Shown here: piece after piece, positions 6,996-20,996 of the stretch
Position numbering within the stretch: position 1 is the stretch's first letter
Layout: each line of letters begins with the position of its first letter
Source of the DNA: an uncultured Acetobacteraceae bacterium
Lineage (GTDB): Bacteria; Pseudomonadota; Alphaproteobacteria; Acetobacterales; Acetobacteraceae
NCBI GenBank assembly: GCA_903877125.1
Contig: CAIRCM010000136.1
Location: 1-64,000, forward strand
Direction of reading: 5' to 3'
Length of the DNA stretch: 64,000 nucleotides
Notes under the pieces: model-generated
Seen by the model: only the letters and a program-made list of their open reading frames with translations
What the model was told of the DNA's origin: nothing
Database searches by the model: none
Translations under genes and position numbers: made by a program

Positions 6996-7823
6996 GTGAA
7001 GCTAGGAATCGTCACAATCCCCCGCCGCATGGCGGAAACCAGCACGACGCCAGTCATCGAACAGGTCGTCTCGATCGCCCAAAACGTCGAAAAGCTCGGC
7101 TTCCACGGGCTTTGGGTCACCGACGCCTTCGCCCGCGGTTTCCCCACCCTCGATCCCCTCGTCCTGCTCGGCGTCCTCGCCGGCACCACGAAAACCATCG
7201 AGCTCGGCACCTGCGTCGTCCAGTTGCCCCTTCGTCATCCGGTCGAGCACGCCCATCGGGTGCAAACCCTGAACCTGCTGGCCAACGGCCGTCTGCGCTT
7301 CGGTGTCGGCAGCGGTTCGACCAAGCACGATTTCGATGCCGTACAGGCCGATTACGAGGCCCGGTTCAAAACCCTGCCCGCCTACCTCGCGGTCATGCAG
7401 CGCGTGTGGAACGGAGAGGGTGTCTACGGCCCCCCCATTTCCGTCTGGCCCGGTACCGAAGGCGGGCCGCCCGTCATGCTCGGCGCCTGGCGCAGCCAAC
7501 GCTGGATCAACCTCGCCGCCCATCATTGCCAGGGCTGGATCGCCTCCGGCATTCATGGATCTTACGAGGACCTCGAACTCGGTATCAAAATGTACCGCGA
7601 AGCCGGCGGCAAACGCGTCATCCTCGCCAACGTCTTCACCGAATTCCGCCCCGACACGCCCGTGGGTATTTCCCACCACGTGCCAAAAATCACCCTGCAA
7701 TGCACCCCGGCCGAGGCAAAGGAGCGCCTGAAACGGTTGGAAGGCATGGGCGTGGACGATGTGCTGTGCGTCGTGCCCGCCGACGACCCTTCGCAGTTGG
7801 ATACGATCCGCGGCCTGATCTGA
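6996..7823 (+). CDS. LLM-class flavin-dependent oxidoreductase (luciferase-like)
   Basis: A 275-residue protein of the bacterial luciferase-like superfamily, which uses FMN or F420 for oxidation or monooxygenation. Typical blocks are EKLGFHGLWVTDAF, GTCVVQLPLRHPVEHA, the NGRLRFGVGSGS segment and PPVMLGAWRSQRW. The GTG at 6996 is taken as start because GGAG lies 7 bases upstream and the protein then begins with the typical first strand (VKLGIVTIP); an in-frame codon at 6936 has no support. A 90-base internal part (7521-7610) recurs in broken form at 8289-8378. The substrate is unknown. Confidence 0.85.
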   Translation: MKLGIVTIPRRMAETSTTPVIEQVVSIAQNVEKLGFHGLWVTDAFARGFPTLDPLVLLGVLAGTTKTIELGTCVVQLPLRHPVEHAHRVQTLNLLANGRLRFGVGSGSTKHDFDAVQADYEARFKTLPAYLAVMQRVWNGEGVYGPPISVWPGTEGGPPVMLGAWRSQRWINLAAHHCQGWIASGIHGSYEDLELGIKMYREAGGKRVILANVFTEFRPDTPVGISHHVPKITLQCTPAEAKERLKRLEGMGVDDVLCVVPADDPSQLDTIRGLI

Positions 7824-8565
7824 CCGCACCGCTGGCCAAATCTGCCGGCTTGCGTGGAGTGGGGTCGAACTTGAACACATCGGCAAGGGACGTATTCGCG
7901 CGGCGGAGGTTGTTCCGAAGGTGCGGGAGCGGCCCCAGCTCCACCTGACGCCCTGGTATGACAAACAATCGCGGGGACCCGAAGATTCCAGCATCACCAT
8001 TGGATATTTGCGCTGTCCGCGGCGCCGTCAACGGGACAGGTGCGTCTTCATGGCGGCCGTGAATGAGGAATTCGCATCGGAACCGCGAACACCGCGACAC
8101 TAAAGTACGTTCAGGATACGTGAAAAAAATTGTCGCAAACTAATCCGACGCGGAGTACGTGCTCGTTCGATAGGGCTTGCCGTTGCGGACGGTTGAAGTG
8201 ACCCTTCGACCCATTGTGATTGTGTATCTATTCGGCAGCCAACGGCGGAGCCAGGTCAGTACACCCCCGCGAGCGACTGGTAGGCGCGCATCATTGCCCG
8301 CGCTGGATCGCCCCCGGCATTCACGGATCTTACGAGGACCTCGACCGCGGCATCAAAATCTACCGCGAAGCCGGCCGCGGTCCCCGTCATCGGCCCATCG
8401 TCGATGAGTCAACGTTTCGGGTTGCTGGCATAGGTAGATTCCGAATCTTTCGCTCGGCCCGGCGGCCCGCCATCCTTGCGACAGCAGGGGCCGACCAAAC
8501 CCCTGAAATTTGGGTCCGAGTTTAAAGCTTTACGAAAATTTCCTCGGGCCGCCTTCGATCCCGGT
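7824..8565. other. gene-poor intergenic region
   Basis: About 740 bases with no open frame showing coding features in either strand; short frames here lack ribosome sites and recognisable domains. Composition is more AT-rich in patches than in neighbouring genes (for example 8100-8150 and 8210-8235). The only recognisable content is the degenerate copy of the preceding oxidoreductase gene at 8289-8378 and, at the right end, the putative kaiC promoter. It looks like decayed DNA. Confidence 0.6.
8289..8378 (+). pseudogene. remnant of a luciferase-like oxidoreductase gene
   Basis: These 90 bases match 7521-7610 of the intact oxidoreductase gene at about 81 of 90 positions by eye. The frame translates to HHCPRWIAPGIHGSYEDLDR against HHCQGWIASGIHGSYEDLEL in the intact gene. 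No homologous sequence is seen on either side, so it is a fragment, not a gene. It could be the relic of a tandem duplication that decayed, or of a diverged paralogue. Confidence 0.75.
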
Positions 8566-8594
8566 TTGAATTGCCCGCAACGGGACAAAATAAT
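8566..8594 (+). promoter_or_regulatory. putative sigma-70-type promoter of the kai operon
   Basis: TTGAAT (8566-8571), 17 bases, then AATAAT (8589-8594), 15 bases before the proposed kaiC ATG at 8610. The spacing is ideal for the housekeeping sigma factor and it sits in the AT-richest stretch before the operon. No GGAAC/CGTT general-stress (EcfG) promoter was seen upstream. Confidence 0.45.
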
Positions 8595-8609
8595 GTGGCG
8601 CGAGGTCTC

Positions 8610-10364
8610 ATGGCGACGATAAAATTAAAGGTGGCAGACGAAAAGCCTCCCAGCCTTCCAAAAGCCCCCACCGGCATCGTGGGCCTCGATGAAATCACCG
8701 CCGGTGGTCTTCCCGCCGGGCGGCCCACACTCATCGCCGGGAGCGCGGGGTGCGGCAAGACGATGCTGGCAATGGAGTTCCTTGTGCGCGGCGCGACGGA
8801 GTTCAGCGAGCCTGGCGTATTCATGATGTTCGAAGAAAACGCCGACGAACTCATCGCCAACGTCCGCTCGCTCGGATTCGACCTCGATGACCTCGTGACA
8901 CGGAAGATGATCGCGCTCGATCATGTGCACATCGAGCGAAGCGACATCGAAGAAACCGGCGCCTACGACCTCGAAGGCCTGTTTATCCGCCTCGGCCATG
9001 CAATCGATTCCATCGGCGCGAAACGCCTGGTCCTGGACACCGTCGAGGCGCTGTTCGCCGGCCTGCCGAATGAGGCCATCCTGCGGTCCGAACTGCGTCG
9101 TCTGTTCCGCTGGTTGAAGGATCGCGGCATCACCGCCATCATCACCGGAGAAAAGGGGGATGGAACCGCGATCACCCGCCACGGACTGGAAGAATATGTC
9201 GCCGACTGCGTGATCGTCCTGGATCAGCGCGTGCGGGACCAGATCTCCACCCGGCGGTTGAGGGTGCTGAAATATCGCGGCACGGCGCATGGAACGAACG
9301 AATACCCGTTCATGATTGGAACGAGCGGATTTTCCGTGCTGCCGGTGACATCGTTGCAACTCGATCATCGCGTGTCGCAGCAGCGGGTGTCTACAGGGGT
9401 GCAGCGTCTCGACGAAATGCTCGGCGGACAGGGAGTGTTTCGAGGCAGCAGCGTGCTGATTTCCGGCTCGCCCGGTACCGGCAAAAGCAGCATTGCCGCG
9501 AAATTCCTCGAAACCGCCTGCCAGCGCGGGGACCGGGCGGCGTATTTCGCCTACGAGGAATCCAAGGCACAGATCGTACGCAACATGCGCTCCATCGGCA
9601 TCGACCTGGAACCCTGGATCGACAAGGGGCTGCTGGAAATTCACGCCTCGCGCCCCACGCATCTGGGACATGAACAGCACCTGGTGGTCATGCACGATCT
9701 GGTGCGAGTGTTCAAACCGGCCGTGGTCGCGGTCGATCCGATCAGCAACCTGTTCATGGCGCACGACGATGCGGAGGTGAAACCGACACTGATGCGGCTG
9801 ATCGACTGGCTCAAGACAGAACAAATCACCGCGGTCCTGACTAGTCTGACCAGCGGCGGCGCATCGCCGTCGGAACTGGACGATCCCCTTGTCGGTGTTT
9901 CCTCCCTGATGGATACGTGGTTGCTGCTTCGTAATTCCGAAATCGCGGGGGAGCGTAACCGCACGATCTTCGTGCGGAAATCGCGCGGAATGGCGCATTC
10001 CAATCAGGTCCGCGAATTCGTTTTAAGCGACAAGGGCATCGATCTCGTGGATGTCTATGTCGGTCGAGATCGCGTACTGACCGGAAGCGCGCGCATGGCG
10101 CAGGAAGCGCAGGAACGGGCCGCCGCCACCCTGCACGCCCAGGATCACGAACGCAAATTGAGGCTCCTGGCCAGCAAGCGAAAGGCGATCGAAGCCCAGA
10201 TCGCCGTGTTGCGAGCCGAAGCCGAGGCCGATGAGGCCGAACTCGATTTCATCGTCGCCGAACAGACATTGCAGAATACGATCGAGAATCGGGATAACGC
10301 CGACATAATCCGCCGGCGTGTCGGTATAGCCCGAATGAACGCCATCGCAACGGGCAACCCATGA
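8610..10364 (+). CDS. kaiC: KaiC-like circadian clock ATPase/autokinase
   Basis: A 584-residue double-domain KaiC. CI carries Walker A GSAGCGKT (44-51) and the catalytic Glu pair in [11 protein letters not shown] carries GSPGTGKSS (286-294) and AYEESKAQ. The CII phosphorylation segment VSSLMDT places Ser at 431 and 432, the same numbers as S431/T432 in the Synechococcus protein. After the core, an extra ~88 residues (about 497-584) rich in Ala, Glu, Arg and Gln look like a coiled coil; the cyanobacterial protein is only 519 long. The ATG at 8610 is preferred over a codon at 8571, which would overlap the promoter. It is the first gene of a five-gene overlapping operon, with no kaiA. Confidence 0.95.
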
Positions 10365-10660
10365 GTATCGTCCCCGCATTCAAACTGCGCCTTTACATCG
10401 CCGGGCACACAGCGAAATCGGTCGCGGCCTTCGCCAATCTGCACCGCATCTGCGAAACGCATCTCGCCGGCCAGTACACCATCGAAGTAATCGACCTCAG
10501 GGAACCGCCGCAACTGGCCGTCGGCGACCAAATTCTTGCCGTTCCCACGCTGGTGCGGTGCCTGTCCGAGCCGATCAAGAAAATCATCGGCGACCTCTCC
10601 AACGAGGCACGCGTGCTGGTCGGCCTGGACATCAAACCCTCCACGCAAGCGACGGCATGA
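10361..10660 (+). CDS. kaiB: KaiB-like protein (first copy)
   Basis: A 99-residue KaiB. It aligns along its length with cyanobacterial Kai[10 protein letters not shown] at the N-terminus, [40 protein letters not shown]. KaiB switches fold to bind the CI ring of phosphorylated KaiC and reset the cycle. Its ATG overlaps the kaiC stop (ATGA), implying coupled translation. The cis-Pro region (VPTL) typical of the thioredoxin-like state is kept. It is a distinct sequence from the second copy directly downstream. Confidence 0.94.
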
Positions 10661-10995
10661 AAAATCTGGCGACGATTCTGGCCGAAGGCGACGCGATGCG
10701 TGCCTCCGCCCATTATGTCTTGCATCTATATATCGCGGGATCGACGCCTAATTCAGTCCGCGCGCTCGCGAACGTCCGTCAGATCTGCGAGGAATGGCTG
10801 GACGGGCGCTACGATCTGGAGGTCCTGGACATCGCCCAAAACCCGGCGCTGGCAGCGCCGGCGCGCATCCTCGCCGCGCCGACGTTGATCCGCCTGGCGC
10901 CGCTGCCGATACGCTGCTTCATCGGCGACATGTCGCGAAGGGACAGCATGCTGGTCAGTCTGGGGTTGCGCCCCCTGGTCGCGTGGTCCGCATGA
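10657..10995 (+). CDS. kaiB: KaiB-like protein (second, divergent copy)
   Basis: A 112-residue second KaiB with about 17 additional N-terminal residues before [20 protein letters not shown], a block that is closer to cyanobacterial KaiB ([13 protein letters not shown]) than the first copy is. The C-terminal half, [20 protein letters not shown], is more diverged: Cys and Asp-Met replace usual residues. The ATG overlaps the stop of the first copy (ATGA at 10657). It may bind KaiC differently, compete with the first copy, or act on the kinase encoded next; this is inference. Confidence 0.92.
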
Positions 10996-12554
10996 AACCG
11001 AAGCGCCTCACCAAAGCGGCGATATTCCTGGAAAACCAGGACCTTCGTGCACGATTGGACGATGTGGAGGAAATGCTGCGCGCGATCGGCCGGGGAGAGG
11101 CGGATGCGCTGGTGATCGAGAATGGCGCCGGCCCGAAGGTCTATACCATCGAAGGGGATGAGGCCGAAGCGAACCGGTTCCGTAGCGATATGCTTGCGAT
11201 GGTCAGCGATGCCATCGTCGCCGTGGACGACAACGAGCGCATAATTTACGTCAATGCGGCCGCGGAGCGGCTGTACGGGTTTCCGGCATCGTCGGCACTC
11301 GGGCGGAAGTTGGCGGAAATCCGCACCTCGCACTGGCCAAGCCCCGAAGCCAGAGAAGCGGCTGTTGCAATGTTCAGGGACCGTGGAGAATGGCATGGGG
11401 ATCATGTCCATATCCTGAACGACGGCCGTATTATCGATATCGAATCAAGCAGCACAAAATTGCGAAACGGATACGGAGGCTTGGGTGGCCGGTTGTCGGT
11501 CATGCGCGACGTCAGCGCGCGTAAGAAGCATGAAACGCAGGTGGCGATCTCCGAGACACGCTACCGCCGGCTGTTCGAATCGGCCCACGACGGCATTCTG
11601 ATTCTCAACCCCGGAACGCGCAAAATCGTCGATGCCAACCCCTTCATGACCCAAATGCTGGGCTATTCGCATGCCGAACTGGTGGGTAGAGAATTGTTCG
11701 AGATCGGCCTGCTGAAGGACGAATCCGCCAGTCAGGAAATGTTCCAAAAACTGCGGGCAACGCGGGCGGTGCGGTATGACAACCTGCCGCTGGAAACCCG
11801 CGCCGGACAGCATCAGGATGTCGAAGTCGTAGCTAATCTCTACGACGAAAGTGGTGATCCGGTCATTCAATGTAACATCCGCGACATCACCGAACGCCGC
11901 CGTGCCGAAGAACACGTGAAACTGCTGATGGCCGAGGTCAATCATCGGGCGAAAAACCTGCTCGCCGTGGTGCAGGCCTTCGCGCATCAGACCGCGAAAT
12001 ACGGCGATCCCGCGAACTTCACCGAACAGTTGTCCGATCGGATCGACGGTCTGGCCGCCGGCCAGGATTTGCTGGTGCGAAACCATTGGATGGGCGTGGA
12101 CGTCGCCGATCTTGTCGAGGTGCAGTTGGCCCATTTCAAGGACCTGATCGGTACCCGCGTGCTGATCGACGGCCCGCCCGCTTTGACATTGAACATGGCG
12201 GCCGCCCAGGGCATCGGAATGGCTCTGCATGAACTGGCGACCAATGCCGCCAAGTATGGCGCGCTGTCGAACCGCGTCGGCAGGGTGCACATCGCCTGGC
12301 GGGTGACGGACGCCCCCAAACCGACCTTCTCGATGTCCTGGCAAGAAAGCGGCGGCCCTGTCGTGGCCCCGCCGACCCGCAAAGGCTTCGGCCAAATCGT
12401 CATCGGCCGCATGGCGGAGGCCTCGGTCGAAGGTCGCGCCGAGATGGCGTTTCGGCCAAGTGGGCTCTCGTGGGACCTGTCAGCGTCTGTCGAGAATACC
12501 TTGGTGTCGACCGGATCGCGAGTTCAAATGAGGACCGGCAATGACGCACGATAG
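10992..12554 (+). CDS. PAS-PAS HWE-family sensor histidine kinase
   Basis: A 520-residue soluble kinase with no membrane segment. An N-terminal helical segment (1-55, ending in a GRGEADALVIENG block seen in many PAS kinases) is followed by two PAS domains (about 57-170 and 180-295). The HWE domain has phospho-acceptor H318 in AEVNHRAKNLLAVV, the N box LHELATNAAKYGALS and the diagnostic W-x-E in MSWQESGGP. HWE kinases are typical of alphaproteobacteria and often feed response pathways for light or general stress. The start overlaps the second kaiB stop (ATGA) and the end overlaps the regulator by 14 bases, so it is the likely output of the Kai module. Confidence 0.92.
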   Translation: MKPKRLTKAAIFLENQDLRARLDDVEEMLRAIGRGEADALVIENGAGPKVYTIEGDEAEANRFRSDMLAMVSDAIVAVDDNERIIYVNAAAERLYGFPASSALGRKLAEIRTSHWPSPEAREAAVAMFRDRGEWHGDHVHILNDGRIIDIESSSTKLRNGYGGLGGRLSVMRDVSARKKHETQVAISETRYRRLFESAHDGILILNPGTRKIVDANPFMTQMLGYSHAELVGRELFEIGLLKDESASQEMFQKLRATRAVRYDNLPLETRAGQHQDVEVVANLYDESGDPVIQCNIRDITERRRAEEHVKLLMAEVNHRAKNLLAVVQAFAHQTAKYGDPANFTEQLSDRIDGLAAGQDLLVRNHWMGVDVADLVEVQLAHFKDLIGTRVLIDGPPALTLNMAAAQGIGMALHELATNAAKYGALSNRVGRVHIAWRVTDAPKPTFSMSWQESGGPVVAPPTRKGFGQIVIGRMAEASVEGRAEMAFRPSGLSWDLSASVENTLVSTGSRVQMRTGNDAR

Positions 12555-12909
12555 CCAAACCCCCCGAGTTCTCATCGTCGAGGATGAGCCCATGCTCGCT
12601 TATGCCCTGGAGGAGTTGGTCATCGAAGCCGGCTTCCAGATCGCGGGCGTGGCCGGAAAACTGGACGCTGCGATCGAGATCATCGATCGCGGCGTCTGCG
12701 ATGCCGCCATCCTTGACGCGAACTTGAAGGGTGTCAGCGCGGGACCCGCGGCTGAGGCGCTGAAGGCGCGCGGAGTACCCTTTATCATCCTGTCGGGGTA
12801 TTCCCAGGATCAACGCCACATGGATTTCGCCGGCGCGATCCACCTTCAAAAGCCCTGCCGCCCGGAACGCCTGATCGAGGCCCGACGCAGTATCCTGCTG
12901 GTTCCATGA
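12541..12909 (+). CDS. single-domain response regulator
   Basis: A 122-residue receiver domain with no output domain. The acidic pair (VEDEP), phospho-acceptor D59 (ILDANLKG), switch Ser (FIILSGYS) and Lys (LQKPCRP) are all present. The SGYS block resembles the FATGY-type receivers that partner HWE kinases. It overlaps the kinase gene by 14 bases and closes the operon. As it has no DNA-binding domain, it should act by protein contact or as a phosphate shuttle or sink; the target is not in this window. Confidence 0.92.
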   Translation: MTHDSQTPRVLIVEDEPMLAYALEELVIEAGFQIAGVAGKLDAAIEIIDRGVCDAAILDANLKGVSAGPAAEALKARGVPFIILSGYSQDQRHMDFAGAIHLQKPCRPERLIEARRSILLVP

Positions 12910-12958: not shown

Positions 12959-14392
12959 CTAACACGATGACGATGAACATCCCCCGCACCCGCTGCTCCC
13001 GCCGCTGTCGCCCCCGCCGCTGCTGCAACCGCTGCTCCCGCTGCCCCCGTCGCTGCCACACCCCGAGGAACTGCCGGTCCCTCCCGTGCGGTGCGCCGGT
13101 ATCGCCAGCGCGGCATAGGGCGTGCCGATCAATACCCCCGCTCCGCCCAGGGCCAGGGCAAGCGCCAGTTCGCTTTCCAGCGGTGCCCGGATCAGCCGCT
13201 TCATTTGACCGCGCATCTGTTTCAGCAAATCGTCGCCCGCCCGGCTCCGAAACGGCCGCCGCATCACCGCGATGATCGCTGCCAGGAGGGTCAGGACCAG
13301 CATAAGGATCAAAAACCCGACGGGCCGGTCACGGTCCAGCCCAACCTGTATTTTCTCCACCCCAAGGACAAACAGCGGTGCGAACAGCACGAGCGTTACC
13401 AGCGATATGGTCGCCCGGCGTGCATGGGTCAGCACCAGCCCGCGCTGTTCCAAAGACCCCCGGATGGTCGTCAAGGCCGGCGCCGCGGTTGCGCGAACCC
13501 TGCCGTAGCGCGCGCCATCGTTCACATAGGGCGCCAGCAGCCCCGGCACCGTTGTATTCGGCCGCACGGCGATCAGGCCACTGGGTGCGATCGTGACATT
13601 CCCGCCGGCCATCGCCTCCAGCATCGCGGTCGCGAACGCGCGCTGGGGGCCGCCCGCGAGGTAGGCCGTCTCGGCCGTGCTCAGCGCACCGCCATGCACC
13701 GCCGGCCCCACGCCCCGCAGCATATGCCGTGCGAAAATCGTCAGAATCCCCACCAGGATGAGGCAACCGACATAGAATTGCAGGAACGCCGCCCCGCTCA
13801 AATCCAACGGGTTCGCCATTTGCGCCATGGCCGAGGCGGGAAACACCGCCATCGCCATGAGCCCAAAAGCCCAACGCCCGGATAGTCGAGGCCGCGGGAG
13901 GACGAACATCCGTTCGGTATCGATGGTACGAAACCGCGGCCGTTGGCCGAACTGTCGCTGGGTGGACGGCCAGAACGCCTCCGGCGGTGGTCCGAACCAG
14001 GCCTCGTACGTGACCAGCGTCCGAGCATACTGTTCGCGGAACTTCCGGTCTTCCGCCGCTCCGCCCTCGGTCGGGTCGTGATGCAGGCGATGCCCCAGCA
14101 CCTGCCCGCACCAGACATCCCAATAATCCCGCGAATACGTCAGATGCTTATGCCAGACCTCGTCCACATCTTCGCTCGGCGTTACCGGCGAGCCCTGCAC
14201 CACCGACAGGAAGCAGAAACGGCGGTGTTCTTCGATGATTTGGCGGGTGTAAGCCAGCGTCCAGGATTTTTCCCGGGCAATGCGGCGCGTGAAGTCCAGC
14301 GGGGTGCCAGGTATCTCGAACGGGTGGGCGACGATCCGTTCCCATAGCGCGCGTCGCTCGCCGGTCCAGTGCGGTTTGGTCAAAAACTCCAT
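12959..14392 (-). CDS. TIGR04222-type membrane protein with Cys/Gly/Ser tail
   Basis: A 477-residue protein with a soluble N-terminal part (about 1-165, including DEVWHKHLTYSRDYWDVW, a block shared with glycine-rich-domain proteins), then four or so hydrophobic helices (near 175-195, 205-225, 330-350, 365-385, and a last one near 415-435). The end is a low-complexity tail of about 33 residues made only of Cys, Gly, Ser and Asp, with Cys in a spaced pattern and as the last residue. This matches the TIGR04222 family, whose function is unknown. The gene converges on the kai operon, ending 50 bases from the response regulator gene. Confidence 0.75.
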   Translation of the reverse strand: MEFLTKPHWTGERRALWERIVAHPFEIPGTPLDFTRRIAREKSWTLAYTRQIIEEHRRFCFLSVVQGSPVTPSEDVDEVWHKHLTYSRDYWDVWCGQVLGHRLHHDPTEGGAAEDRKFREQYARTLVTYEAWFGPPPEAFWPSTQRQFGQRPRFRTIDTERMFVLPRPRLSGRWAFGLMAMAVFPASAMAQMANPLDLSGAAFLQFYVGCLILVGILTIFARHMLRGVGPAVHGGALSTAETAYLAGGPQRAFATAMLEAMAGGNVTIAPSGLIAVRPNTTVPGLLAPYVNDGARYGRVRATAAPALTTIRGSLEQRGLVLTHARRATISLVTLVLFAPLFVLGVEKIQVGLDRDRPVGFLILMLVLTLLAAIIAVMRRPFRSRAGDDLLKQMRGQMKRLIRAPLESELALALALGGAGVLIGTPYAALAIPAHRTGGTGSSSGCGSDGGSGSSGCSSGGGDSGGSSGCGGCSSSSC

Positions 14393-19187: not shown

Positions 19188-20996
19188 TCAGGATGAGGAC
19201 GCGCGCGCGCCCACGCCAAGCGCGGGCCGGGTCCGGCCTGACCACGCCGGTTGTTGTGCGGCCATCAGCCGATCCGCTTCTTCGGCCGGCATCGGCCGCC
19301 CCAGAAAGTAGCCCTGCCCGAACGTGCATCCCAGTTCCCGCAACCGGTCCAGCGTCGCACGGTTCTCGATCCCCTCGGCCGTGATTTCCAGGCCAAGCGC
19401 ATGCCCGAAATCGATGATCGCCGCGACGTAGCGCGACGCCTCGGGATCGGTGTCGAGGTCCCGCATGAATTCCCTATCCACCTTCACCTTGTCGAACGGC
19501 AGTTCCCGCAGGTGGTAAAGGCTGGAAAATCCGGTCCCGAAATCGTCCAGCGCGATCGTCAGCCCCAGGGCGCGCAGACGGTCCAGCACCTCCCGCGCGA
19601 TGCGGGCGTCATGCACCAAAGCGTTTTCGGTGATTTCGAGTTCCATCCGCTCGCCCGGGAAGCCGGCGGTCGTCAGGATGTCCCGCATCACATCGGGCAG
19701 CCGCGTATCTTGCAACTCCACCGGCGAGACGTTGATCGCGAGCTTGATCCGCGCCGGCCAATGCAACGCCGCTCGGCACGCCCGCATCAACAGCGAGCCG
19801 AACATCGCGGACGATTGATTGGTCTCCTCCACCAGCGGCAGAAAATCGGCCGGCGACAGCAGGCCGTGGTCGGGATGCGACCAGCGAGCCAGGACTTCGA
19901 ACCCGACGATCGTATTGTCGTCCATCCGCACCAGAGGTTGGAAATACGGCAGGATGGCGCCGGTCGCGATGGCCACCGGCAGTTCGCGACGCAGCGCGTC
20001 GGATTTCTCCATCGCCTCCGCCATGCGCGGCTCGAAGAACCGGTAGGTATCGCCGCCGCCACCACGGGCATGGATCATCGCGATGTCGGCGGCGCGCAGC
20101 AAAGCGGCGGCGGACGCCCCGTCGCGCGCGCTGACGGCAATGCCGACACTGGCGCCGATATCGACGGTCGCCGATCCCGCCTCGATCGGCTCCCCCAGAG
20201 CCCGGATCAGGTCGCGGGCACGGGCGGCGGTCGCCGAATCGCCCTCGGCCGCGCGGATCAGCACCGCGAAATCGTCATCGCCCAGCCGGGCGACGAGTAA
20301 CTCGCCTTCCATGGCCAGGGTCAGGCGGCCCGCGACCTCCCGCAGCAGACGTTCGGCGATCTCATGGCCGTAGCGGTCGCTGGCCGCACCGAAACGGTCG
20401 ACATCGAGCAGCAGCACCGCCACATCCTGCCGATCGGTCAGCAACTGATTCAGCGTTTCCAAAAAGCACTCGCGGTTGGCGAGGTCGGTGAGCGGATCGC
20501 GGAAAACACGCTGACGGAGCTTGCCCCGGGCCTCGGCCAGCAAGGCTTCGGTCCTGGCGTGTTCGGTGATGTCGGTCAGGATCAGCATCGCGCCGGCGCC
20601 GTTGGGCAATGGCCGGTTCTGGCACGACATCGCGACCGTATGGCCGTCGCGGTGGCGCACCGTCATCCGGGAGCCCGGCACGGGGCGGGTCAGATCCACC
20701 TCTGCCCGGCGCCTGATGTCCGCCGGCGTGTATCCCAGCACGGCTTCGCACGATGGCGAGACATAGACCGGCTGGCCCAGCGCATCGAGGCGAACCACGA
20801 TCTGCGGTCCGGCGTCCATCAGCGTTTGAAACAGCAGTTGCTGGTCGGCGTGGTCGGCCCGCAGATGCGCGAGATTCCAGTCCCGCATGCGCAGATCCTG
20901 CGCCATCCGGCGAAAGCCAGGCCAAAGCGTCAGCCAGCCGATCAGCGTGCCCGCCAGCCCGAAGCCGCCCATCGTCAAAATCGTATCGACGCGCAT
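19188..20996 (-). CDS. PAS-GGDEF-EAL protein, likely c-di-GMP phosphodiesterase
   Basis: A 602-residue protein with an N-terminal membrane helix (about 7-27), a PAS domain (about 52-145), a GGDEF domain (about 155-310) and an EAL domain (about 325-585). The GGDEF signature is changed to LGDDDF, so cyclase activity is doubtful. The EAL domain keeps its metal and catalytic blocks: EVLARW, INVSPVEL, LEITENAL, LDDFGTGFSS, KVDREFM and AEGIEN. It should hydrolyse cyclic di-GMP at the membrane under control of the PAS signal. It is divergent from ogt and stands alone. Confidence 0.9.
   Translation of the reverse strand: MRVDTILTMGGFGLAGTLIGWLTLWPGFRRMAQDLRMRDWNLAHLRADHADQQLLFQTLMDAGPQIVVRLDALGQPVYVSPSCEAVLGYTPADIRRRAEVDLTRPVPGSRMTVRHRDGHTVAMSCQNRPLPNGAGAMLILTDITEHARTEALLAEARGKLRQRVFRDPLTDLANRECFLETLNQLLTDRQDVAVLLLDVDRFGAASDRYGHEIAERLLREVAGRLTLAMEGELLVARLGDDDFAVLIRAAEGDSATAARARDLIRALGEPIEAGSATVDIGASVGIAVSARDGASAAALLRAADIAMIHARGGGGDTYRFFEPRMAEAMEKSDALRRELPVAIATGAILPYFQPLVRMDDNTIVGFEVLARWSHPDHGLLSPADFLPLVEETNQSSAMFGSLLMRACRAALHWPARIKLAINVSPVELQDTRLPDVMRDILTTAGFPGERMELEITENALVHDARIAREVLDRLRALGLTIALDDFGTGFSSLYHLRELPFDKVKVDREFMRDLDTDPEASRYVAAIIDFGHALGLEITAEGIENRATLDRLRELGCTFGQGYFLGRPMPAEEADRLMAAQQPAWSGRTRPALGVGARASSS

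What the first reader, a model, noticed from the sequence alone, without database searches (positions are those of the whole stretch)
8610..12909. Five-gene KaiC-KaiB-KaiB-HWE kinase-receiver operon without KaiA
Seen: five genes overlap one another (ATGA or 14-base overlaps), so they are made together: KaiC, two different KaiBs, a PAS-PAS HWE histidine kinase and a stand-alone receiver. Known: cyanobacterial clocks use KaiA with SasA/RpaA output; KaiA-free KaiBC timers are known in purple bacteria. Inference: this is a self-contained, KaiA-free timing module with a built-in, non-SasA output that links KaiC state to an HWE phosphorelay. It is the most likely undescribed system in the window.
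Basis: partly seen in the sequence, partly recalled or inferred. Interest (0 to 1): 0.85.

Follow-up and report, generated by a model that had tools for sequence, protein, structure and literature searches.

The report
KaiBC timer operon with HWE kinase
These five genes form a bacterial KaiC-KaiB timing operon of a kind already studied in purple bacteria, and comparing its relatives exposes a short conserved stretch at the start of the output protein that may be where the timer plugs into cell signalling.

Summary
In detail: kaiC, two kaiBs, a PAS-PAS-HWE kinase and a stand-alone receiver, overlapping by 4, 4, 4 and 14 nt. It is not an undescribed kind of system: kaiC-kaiB-kinase operons are published, one with a receiver and one with two kaiBs (PMC4794148, PMC3899966, PMC8069551, PMC3164672), and the Cereibacter sphaeroides timer has an HWE kinase behind kaiCB. 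This is a two-KaiB, separate-receiver variant. New to me is a ~45-residue leader at the kinase N-terminus, without Pfam match: in 69 of 70 related loci with at least 1,500 nt behind KaiC, before PAS in 73 of 73 proteins, with varied outputs behind (HisKA, HWE, HisKA_2, HisKA_3, GGDEF-EAL, HD, none recognised). Of 398 genomes of the window's phylum 11 carry it, 10 within 1 kb of this KaiC type; 0 of 23 with only other KaiCs do. KaiB1 forms a clade excluding the KaiB2s; KaiB2 is the more SasA-like, and one natural protein joins KaiB2-leader-PAS-GAF-GGDEF-EAL. Best reading: KaiC state is read through leader and PAS, sets the kinase and passes to the receiver. Signalling and timing are untested.

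The parts
8610..10364 (+). kaiC, 584 aa, double ATPase, Ser431-Ser432, C-terminal extension
   Evidence: Pfam PF06745 1.1e-107; best PDB chain 8dba_A, C. sphaeroides KaiC, residues 16-572; motifs
10361..10660 (+). kaiB1, 99 aa, first-position clade, same clade as the C. sphaeroides KaiB
   Evidence: PF07689 3.7e-24; tree, best clade has support 0.969 and 0 errors, 0.951 with 16 more sequences
10657..10995 (+). kaiB2, 112 aa, second-position KaiB, outside the KaiB1 clade
   Evidence: PF07689 1.5e-22; profile of 41 KaiB2s reaches the SasA sensor domain
10992..12554 (+). PAS-PAS-HWE histidine kinase, 520 aa, His318
   Evidence: PF07536 2.6e-20, PAS matches; H-box, N-box and W-x-E motifs
10992..11162 (+). 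kai leader, residues 1-57 of the kinase; modelled as helix 8-33 then strands 39-44 and 47-52
   Evidence: profile A3; only copy found in the own genome; model of moderate confidence, pLDDT about 50-90 here
12541..12909 (+). stand-alone receiver, 122 aa, Asp59, no output domain found
   Evidence: PF00072 2e-11, no other Pfam match; motifs

Best explanation
A KaiBC timer (hourglass or ATP/ADP-driven switch) of the C. sphaeroides kind with a built-in two-component output. KaiC rings autophosphorylate at Ser431-Ser432 and dephosphorylate as the ATP/ADP ratio falls; KaiB1 binds one KaiC state. KaiB2 and/or the kinase leader read that state; the leader passes it through the PAS domains to the HWE core, which phosphorylates receiver Asp59; the receiver acts by protein contact, since it has no output domain. 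Shown here: genes, motifs, conserved order, leader-KaiC association, natural fusions. Inferred: every binding event, phosphotransfer and timing behaviour.
For: KaiC aligns to C. sphaeroides KaiC over 16-572, C-terminal extension and Ser pair included; the biochemistry is from passages of PMC10076222. C. sphaeroides has kaiC-kaiB-HWE kinase with the same leader (55.7 bits). Leader: 69 of 70 loci with room. In 398 genomes, 10 of 11 leader hits lie within 1 kb of this KaiC type, 10 of 10 genomes with that type have it, 0 of 23 with only other KaiCs do (Fisher 4.5e-19, treating genomes as independent, which they are not). It is the best conserved part: 11 of the top 20 columns in 73 proteins. Natural fusions: KaiB2-leader-PAS-GAF-GGDEF-EAL in L100, leader-PAS-PAS-HWE-REC in L043.
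Against: No binding, phosphorylation or rhythm data. C. sphaeroides, Falsirhodobacter, Rhizobium BG4 and Sinorhizobium B11 keep the leader with a single, KaiB1-type KaiB, so it does not need KaiB2. In the less biased whole-genome sample only 5 of 11 operons have two KaiBs; of the 6 with one, 2 are KaiB1-type and 4 fall outside that clade. L114 has kaiC-kaiB-kaiB-HisKA-REC without leader. G318 has a partial leader and no KaiC at E 1e-60. Window KaiB2 has Ser and Gly where most KaiB2s have Gly and Asp. The leader profile was built from kai-linked copies, 'this KaiC type' is a post-hoc cut (1e-200; gap from 1.2e-202 to 6.9e-131), and at most 17 (phylum) or 35 (class) candidates per genome were scored. 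The leader could be a kinase coiled coil that never touches Kai proteins.
Confidence: 0.6

Rival explanations
1. The kinase is input, not output: its PAS domains sense redox or another cue and the phosphorelay sets KaiC.
For: Passages in PMC5520375 and PMC10931921 report that the C. sphaeroides kinase was proposed to pass a redox signal to KaiBC.
Against: The leader also heads HisKA, HisKA_2, HisKA_3, GGDEF-EAL and HD proteins, more natural as swapped outputs. KaiC of C. sphaeroides responds to ATP/ADP by itself (PMC10076222, passages).
Confidence: 0.2
2. Output feeds the alphaproteobacterial general stress response (PhyR-NepR-EcfG) through the single-domain receiver.
For: HWE kinases and single-domain receivers do so in other Alphaproteobacteria (recalled); the receiver has a weak PhyR-family match, E 2.8e-10, far under the cut-off.
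Against: No NepR match in the own genome, while Caulobacter rings; 19 matches to the PhyR model but none over its cut-off (best 67.8 of 240 bits) and each covering only part of it. The assembly is estimated 97.9% complete.
Confidence: 0.05
3. A stress or metabolic switch (for example UV or temperature tolerance) rather than a clock or hourglass.
For: In M. extorquens, which has a kaiC1-kaiB2-kaiB1-kaiR1 cluster, KaiC1 promotes temperature-dependent UV resistance (PMC8069551, passages).
Against: It does not exclude timing; KaiC here has both Ser sites and the extension of the C. sphaeroides timer.
Confidence: 0.3

Closest known systems
Cereibacter (Rhodobacter) sphaeroides KaiBC with HWE kinase, plasmid pB
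   Same: KaiC type with C-terminal extension and Ser pair, KaiB1-type KaiB, HWE kinase with the leader directly behind
   Different: One KaiB; no receiver gene among the listed neighbours (gene table may be incomplete); KaiC tree puts HisKA-bearing lineages between the two; kinases 28% identical
Methylorubrum extorquens AM1 kaiC1-kaiB2-kaiB1-kaiR1
   Same: KaiC with two KaiBs in a row and a fourth gene (PMC8069551, passages)
   Different: What kaiR1 encodes was not seen; leader not tested there
Bradyrhizobium ORS278 BRADO1478-1481 and R. palustris kaiC-kaiB-PAS kinase
   Same: KaiC, KaiB, PAS kinase and, in ORS278, a CheY-like receiver (PMC3899966, PMC4794148, passages)
   Different: One KaiB listed; kinase class and leader not tested
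Cyanobacterial KaiABC with SasA-RpaA
   Same: KaiC and KaiB; a histidine kinase as proposed output
   Different: No KaiA in the operon; kinase has no KaiB-like domain and is HWE; receiver has no DNA-binding domain

Membership tests
KaiA-less KaiBC timer, C. sphaeroides type | two-domain KaiC with both P-loops, Glu pairs and a phosphorylatable residue pair | tested here: met
KaiA-less KaiBC timer, C. sphaeroides type | C-terminal coiled-coil extension | tested here: met
   by sequence only: alignment runs to residue 572 against 8dba; no KaiC structure was modelled
KaiA-less KaiBC timer, C. sphaeroides type | KaiB gene beside kaiC | tested here: met
KaiA-less KaiBC timer, C. sphaeroides type | no KaiA or KaiA3 in the genome | not tested
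KaiA-less KaiBC timer, C. sphaeroides type | time-dependent KaiC phosphorylation | not testable with these tools
   needs biochemistry
SasA-RpaA output | KaiB-like sensor domain fused to a HisKA kinase | tested here: not met
   kinase has PAS and HWE only
SasA-RpaA output | regulator with DNA-binding domain | tested here: not met
   receiver only
HWE histidine kinase | HWE domain with phospho-accepting His, N-box and W-x-E | tested here: met
KaiA3 | receiver fused to a KaiA-like C-terminal domain | tested here: not met
   122 aa, Response_reg only
PhyR-NepR general stress response input | PhyR and NepR in the genome | tested here: not met
   Caulobacter ringing for NepR; draft assembly

The most novel reading that the evidence does not exclude
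The leader is a dedicated Kai-coupling adaptor, unnamed in Pfam, found by record title in Alpha-, Beta-, Gamma-, Delta- and Zetaproteobacteria, Bacteroidetes, Planctomycetes, Verrucomicrobia, Chloroflexi, Nitrospirae and Methanoperedens. Placed before a PAS domain, it lets KaiC/KaiB state drive whatever output lies behind (HWE, HisKA, HisKA_2, HisKA_3, c-di-GMP enzymes, HD, or PAS alone). KaiB2, where present, is a detached SasA-like KaiC reader working with it: a split, interchangeable SasA. (Lowered from 0.35 to 0.30 after counting that 6 of 11 operons in the whole-genome sample have one KaiB, of either kind.)
Probability: 0.3. Interest if true: 0.78.

Novelty: new variant of a known kind. 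Interest (0 to 1): 0.55.

Why it matters
[quoted passage not shown] The leader, present even in the kinase beside the biochemically studied C. sphaeroides KaiBC, gives a specific 45-residue target for a deletion or pull-down test, and could serve as a marker for KaiC-linked outputs of any class.

Tried and rejected
General stress response as output: disfavoured for this genome as far as it is assembled. KaiB2 as a constitutively fold-switched form: window KaiB2 has Ser and Gly where T. elongatus KaiB has Gly89 and Asp91, but Gly is kept in 64 of 77 KaiB2s and Asp in 54 of 77, so not claimed for the family; that these sites matter for fold switching is recalled, and a search of PMC11551320 did not find them. 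Leader as a general PAS-kinase element: one hit in the own genome, 78 candidates scored. G038 leader match: its protein reads as LysR-type by eye (no family search), taken as chance. G019 seemed a leader without this KaiC: its contig is a KaiB2-HWE-REC operon cut at the contig edge. Solved structures matching the leader: best E 0.026, a chance-level match. Searches aimed at HWE plus Kai: one search gave 3 papers, none. A Bacteroidota genome survey could not be centred and was dropped.

Literature: 15 papers opened. Section 17 of PMC3164672 was read in full, PMC6769508 as outline and abstract; PMC8069551, PMC10076222, PMC4794148, PMC3899966, PMC10359499, PMC5520375, PMC9041414, PMC11372060, PMC12573494, PMC11551320, PMC6627678, PMC5847659 and PMC10931921 as passages. 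The primary M. extorquens paper (Iguchi 2018) was seen only as a citation. That the leader is undescribed rests on searches and these readings; none searched for the leader's letters, and supplements and figures were not seen.
Full report
Observation. The five genes lie where stated, 8610-12909, all on the + strand, with overlaps of 4, 4, 4 and 14 nt. Pfam names them KaiC, KaiB, KaiB, PAS-PAS-HWE_HK and Response_reg. Catalytic motifs are intact: KaiC P-loops 44-51 and 286-293, Glu pairs 75-76 and 316-317, Ser431-Ser432; kinase His318, N-box and W-x-E; receiver acidic pair, Asp59, Ser and Lys. A promoter-like site at 8566-8594 precedes kaiC, but such matches are not evidence of function (4 in the region, 1.4 expected).

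What KaiC it is. The best solved relative is C. sphaeroides KaiC (8dba_A, E 5.8e-183), aligned from residue 16 to 572, through the Ser pair and into the C-terminal extension that builds the dodecamer coiled coil (biology from passages of PMC10076222). The own genome holds no second KaiC at comparable score; two other matches are E 3.1e-7 and 4.6e-4.

Conservation. Of 59 genomes (own included) 11 had a KaiC at E up to 1e-40 and 9 of them this type. Three congeners have the same five-gene order: G016, G017, G013. A fourth, G019, shows KaiB2-HWE-receiver cut at a contig edge. Five other congeners (G006, G008, G024, G028, G029) have kaiC-kaiB-kaiB followed by a kinase with a HisKA-like H-box and a receiver instead (my own profile and motif, not Pfam); the G029 copy is broken into several frames. 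Among named contigs L038, L039 and L041 show the full order, L042 and L046 are the G017 and G013 loci again, L040, L047 and L050 have the leader and HWE parts in separate frames, and L043 fuses kinase and receiver and shows no KaiB1.

Wider survey. Of the 80, 70 have at least 1,500 nt behind KaiC; 64 of these 70 have exactly two KaiBs and the leader, 5 have another number of KaiBs with leader, and 1 (L114) has no leader. Record titles range from Proteobacteria of several classes to Bacteroidetes, Planctomycetes, Verrucomicrobia, Chloroflexi and Methanoperedens; many are MAGs and titles may mislabel bins. In a less biased sample, the 11 this-type operons fetched from whole genomes, only 5 have two KaiBs.

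The leader. No listed Pfam or NCBIfam stretch lies in residues 1-54 of the kinase, nor before the first PAS in seven of the eight other leader proteins scanned; in the eighth, P0001, only KaiB does. A profile of 35 copies finds it in 11 of 59 relatives, 4 of 190 genomes of the class and 11 of 398 of the phylum. In the phylum set 10 of the 11 lie within 1 kb of a KaiC of this type, all 10 genomes with this type have it, and 0 of 23 genomes with only other KaiCs have it. In the class set 3 of 4 lie beside this KaiC type, 0 of 6 genomes with other KaiCs have it, and the fourth protein reads as LysR-type. In the relatives set 9 of 9 with this type have it; the other two hits are G019 (operon cut by a contig edge) and the same LysR-type protein. 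G318 has a partial leader and no KaiC at E 1e-60.

What stands behind the leader. In the 73 leader proteins of the 80 loci PAS is found in 73, HisKA in 40, HWE in 9, HisKA_2 in 4, HisKA_3 in 1, GGDEF in 3 and EAL in 3, HD in 1; some match two kinase models. By my motif sort 19 have no recognised output, of which 2 are split genes and 3 reach a contig edge. The leader holds 11 of the 20 best conserved columns; the set was picked by leader match, but only 1 of 70 loci with room lacked it. Of 13 plasmid records with this KaiC (9 Cereibacter) I fetched 5: the proteins behind KaiB in C. sphaeroides 2.4.1, Falsirhodobacter, Rhizobium BG4, Sinorhizobium B11 and Pararhizobium all carry the leader. The model of the window kinase (mean pLDDT 75.5, pTM 0.47) shows helix 8-33 and strands 39-44 and 47-52, with confidence falling from about 90 to the 50s.

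Two KaiBs. First- and second-position KaiBs (78 each) separate without error at the best clade, KaiB1, support 0.969; the C. sphaeroides KaiB falls in KaiB1. An earlier tree with fewer sequences gave the same split with support only 0.323. In five further two-KaiB operons the first KaiB falls in that clade and the second outside, 5 of 5 (support 0.951); of six single KaiBs 2 fall inside and 4 outside. KaiB2 is defined as outside KaiB1, not shown to be one clade. A profile of 41 KaiB2s reaches SasA sensor chains 6x61_B (3.9e-5) and 1t4y_A (6e-4); one of 41 KaiB1s does not at E 0.01, though it touches thioredoxins at 0.007-0.01. In L100 KaiB2 is joined in one frame to leader, PAS, GAF, GGDEF and EAL. 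KaiB competes with SasA on KaiC (PMC6769508, abstract). Hence the proposal that KaiB2 is a detached SasA-like reader; against it, four of the five fetched plasmid systems keep the leader with one KaiB1-type KaiB.

Output swapping. On a tree of 99 KaiCs (outputs labelled by my motif sort) the window's HWE clade (0.999) sits within a clade of support 1.0 that also holds HisKA and GGDEF-EAL systems, apart from the C. sphaeroides HWE group. HWE kinases therefore seem to have come to stand behind the leader more than once; deep nodes are weakly supported, and one intended outgroup fell inside.

Origin. Windows inside the kai region have GC 0.59-0.62 against 0.63-0.71 in windows outside 7500-12500. 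In G001, which has no KaiC match, the LLM and SGL neighbours lie 47 nt apart, where the window has the kai operon and the gene at 12959-14392 between them; in the three other congeners looked at (G003, G011, G016) SGL was not found in the stretch fetched, which ends close by in G003 and G016. A lateral gain or a move of the operon is likely but rests on one empty site.

Prior work. [quoted passage not shown] that section does not name this leader. PMC4794148, PMC3899966 and PMC10931921 (passages) describe kaiC-kaiB with a PAS kinase, PMC3899966 also the receiver, and PMC8069551 (passages) two KaiBs in a row.

Verdict. A known kind of operon, in a two-KaiB, separate-receiver variant, with an uncharacterised leader that makes the output question testable.

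Noticed in passing
window 8285-8378: 94-nt partial copy (89%) of the luciferase-like gene at 7517-7610, just upstream of kaiC.
   Followed up: partly
window 12959-14392 (-): Gene without Pfam match, Gly/Ser/Cys-rich tail, sitting with the kai operon between neighbours that are adjacent in G001; matched in 3 of 40 relatives, own included.
   Followed up: partly
L100 2591-5329: Natural KaiB2-leader-PAS-GAF-GGDEF-EAL protein.
   Followed up: partly
L065, L071: kai loci with four and three KaiB genes before the leader protein.
   Followed up: no
13 loci with Bacteroidetes-type titles among L070-L110: Leader-PAS proteins of about 229-237 aa with no recognised output domain by my motif sort; one (L073) scanned alone with Pfam, only PAS-type sensor matches.
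   Followed up: partly
L136 6825-9941 (G318): Protein with a partial leader in a genome without a KaiC match at E 1e-60.
   Followed up: no
L105 12300-12458: A second leader protein directly behind the first, on the same strand.
   Followed up: no
window 19191-20996 (-): GGDEF-EAL protein about 6 kb from the kai operon.
   Followed up: no
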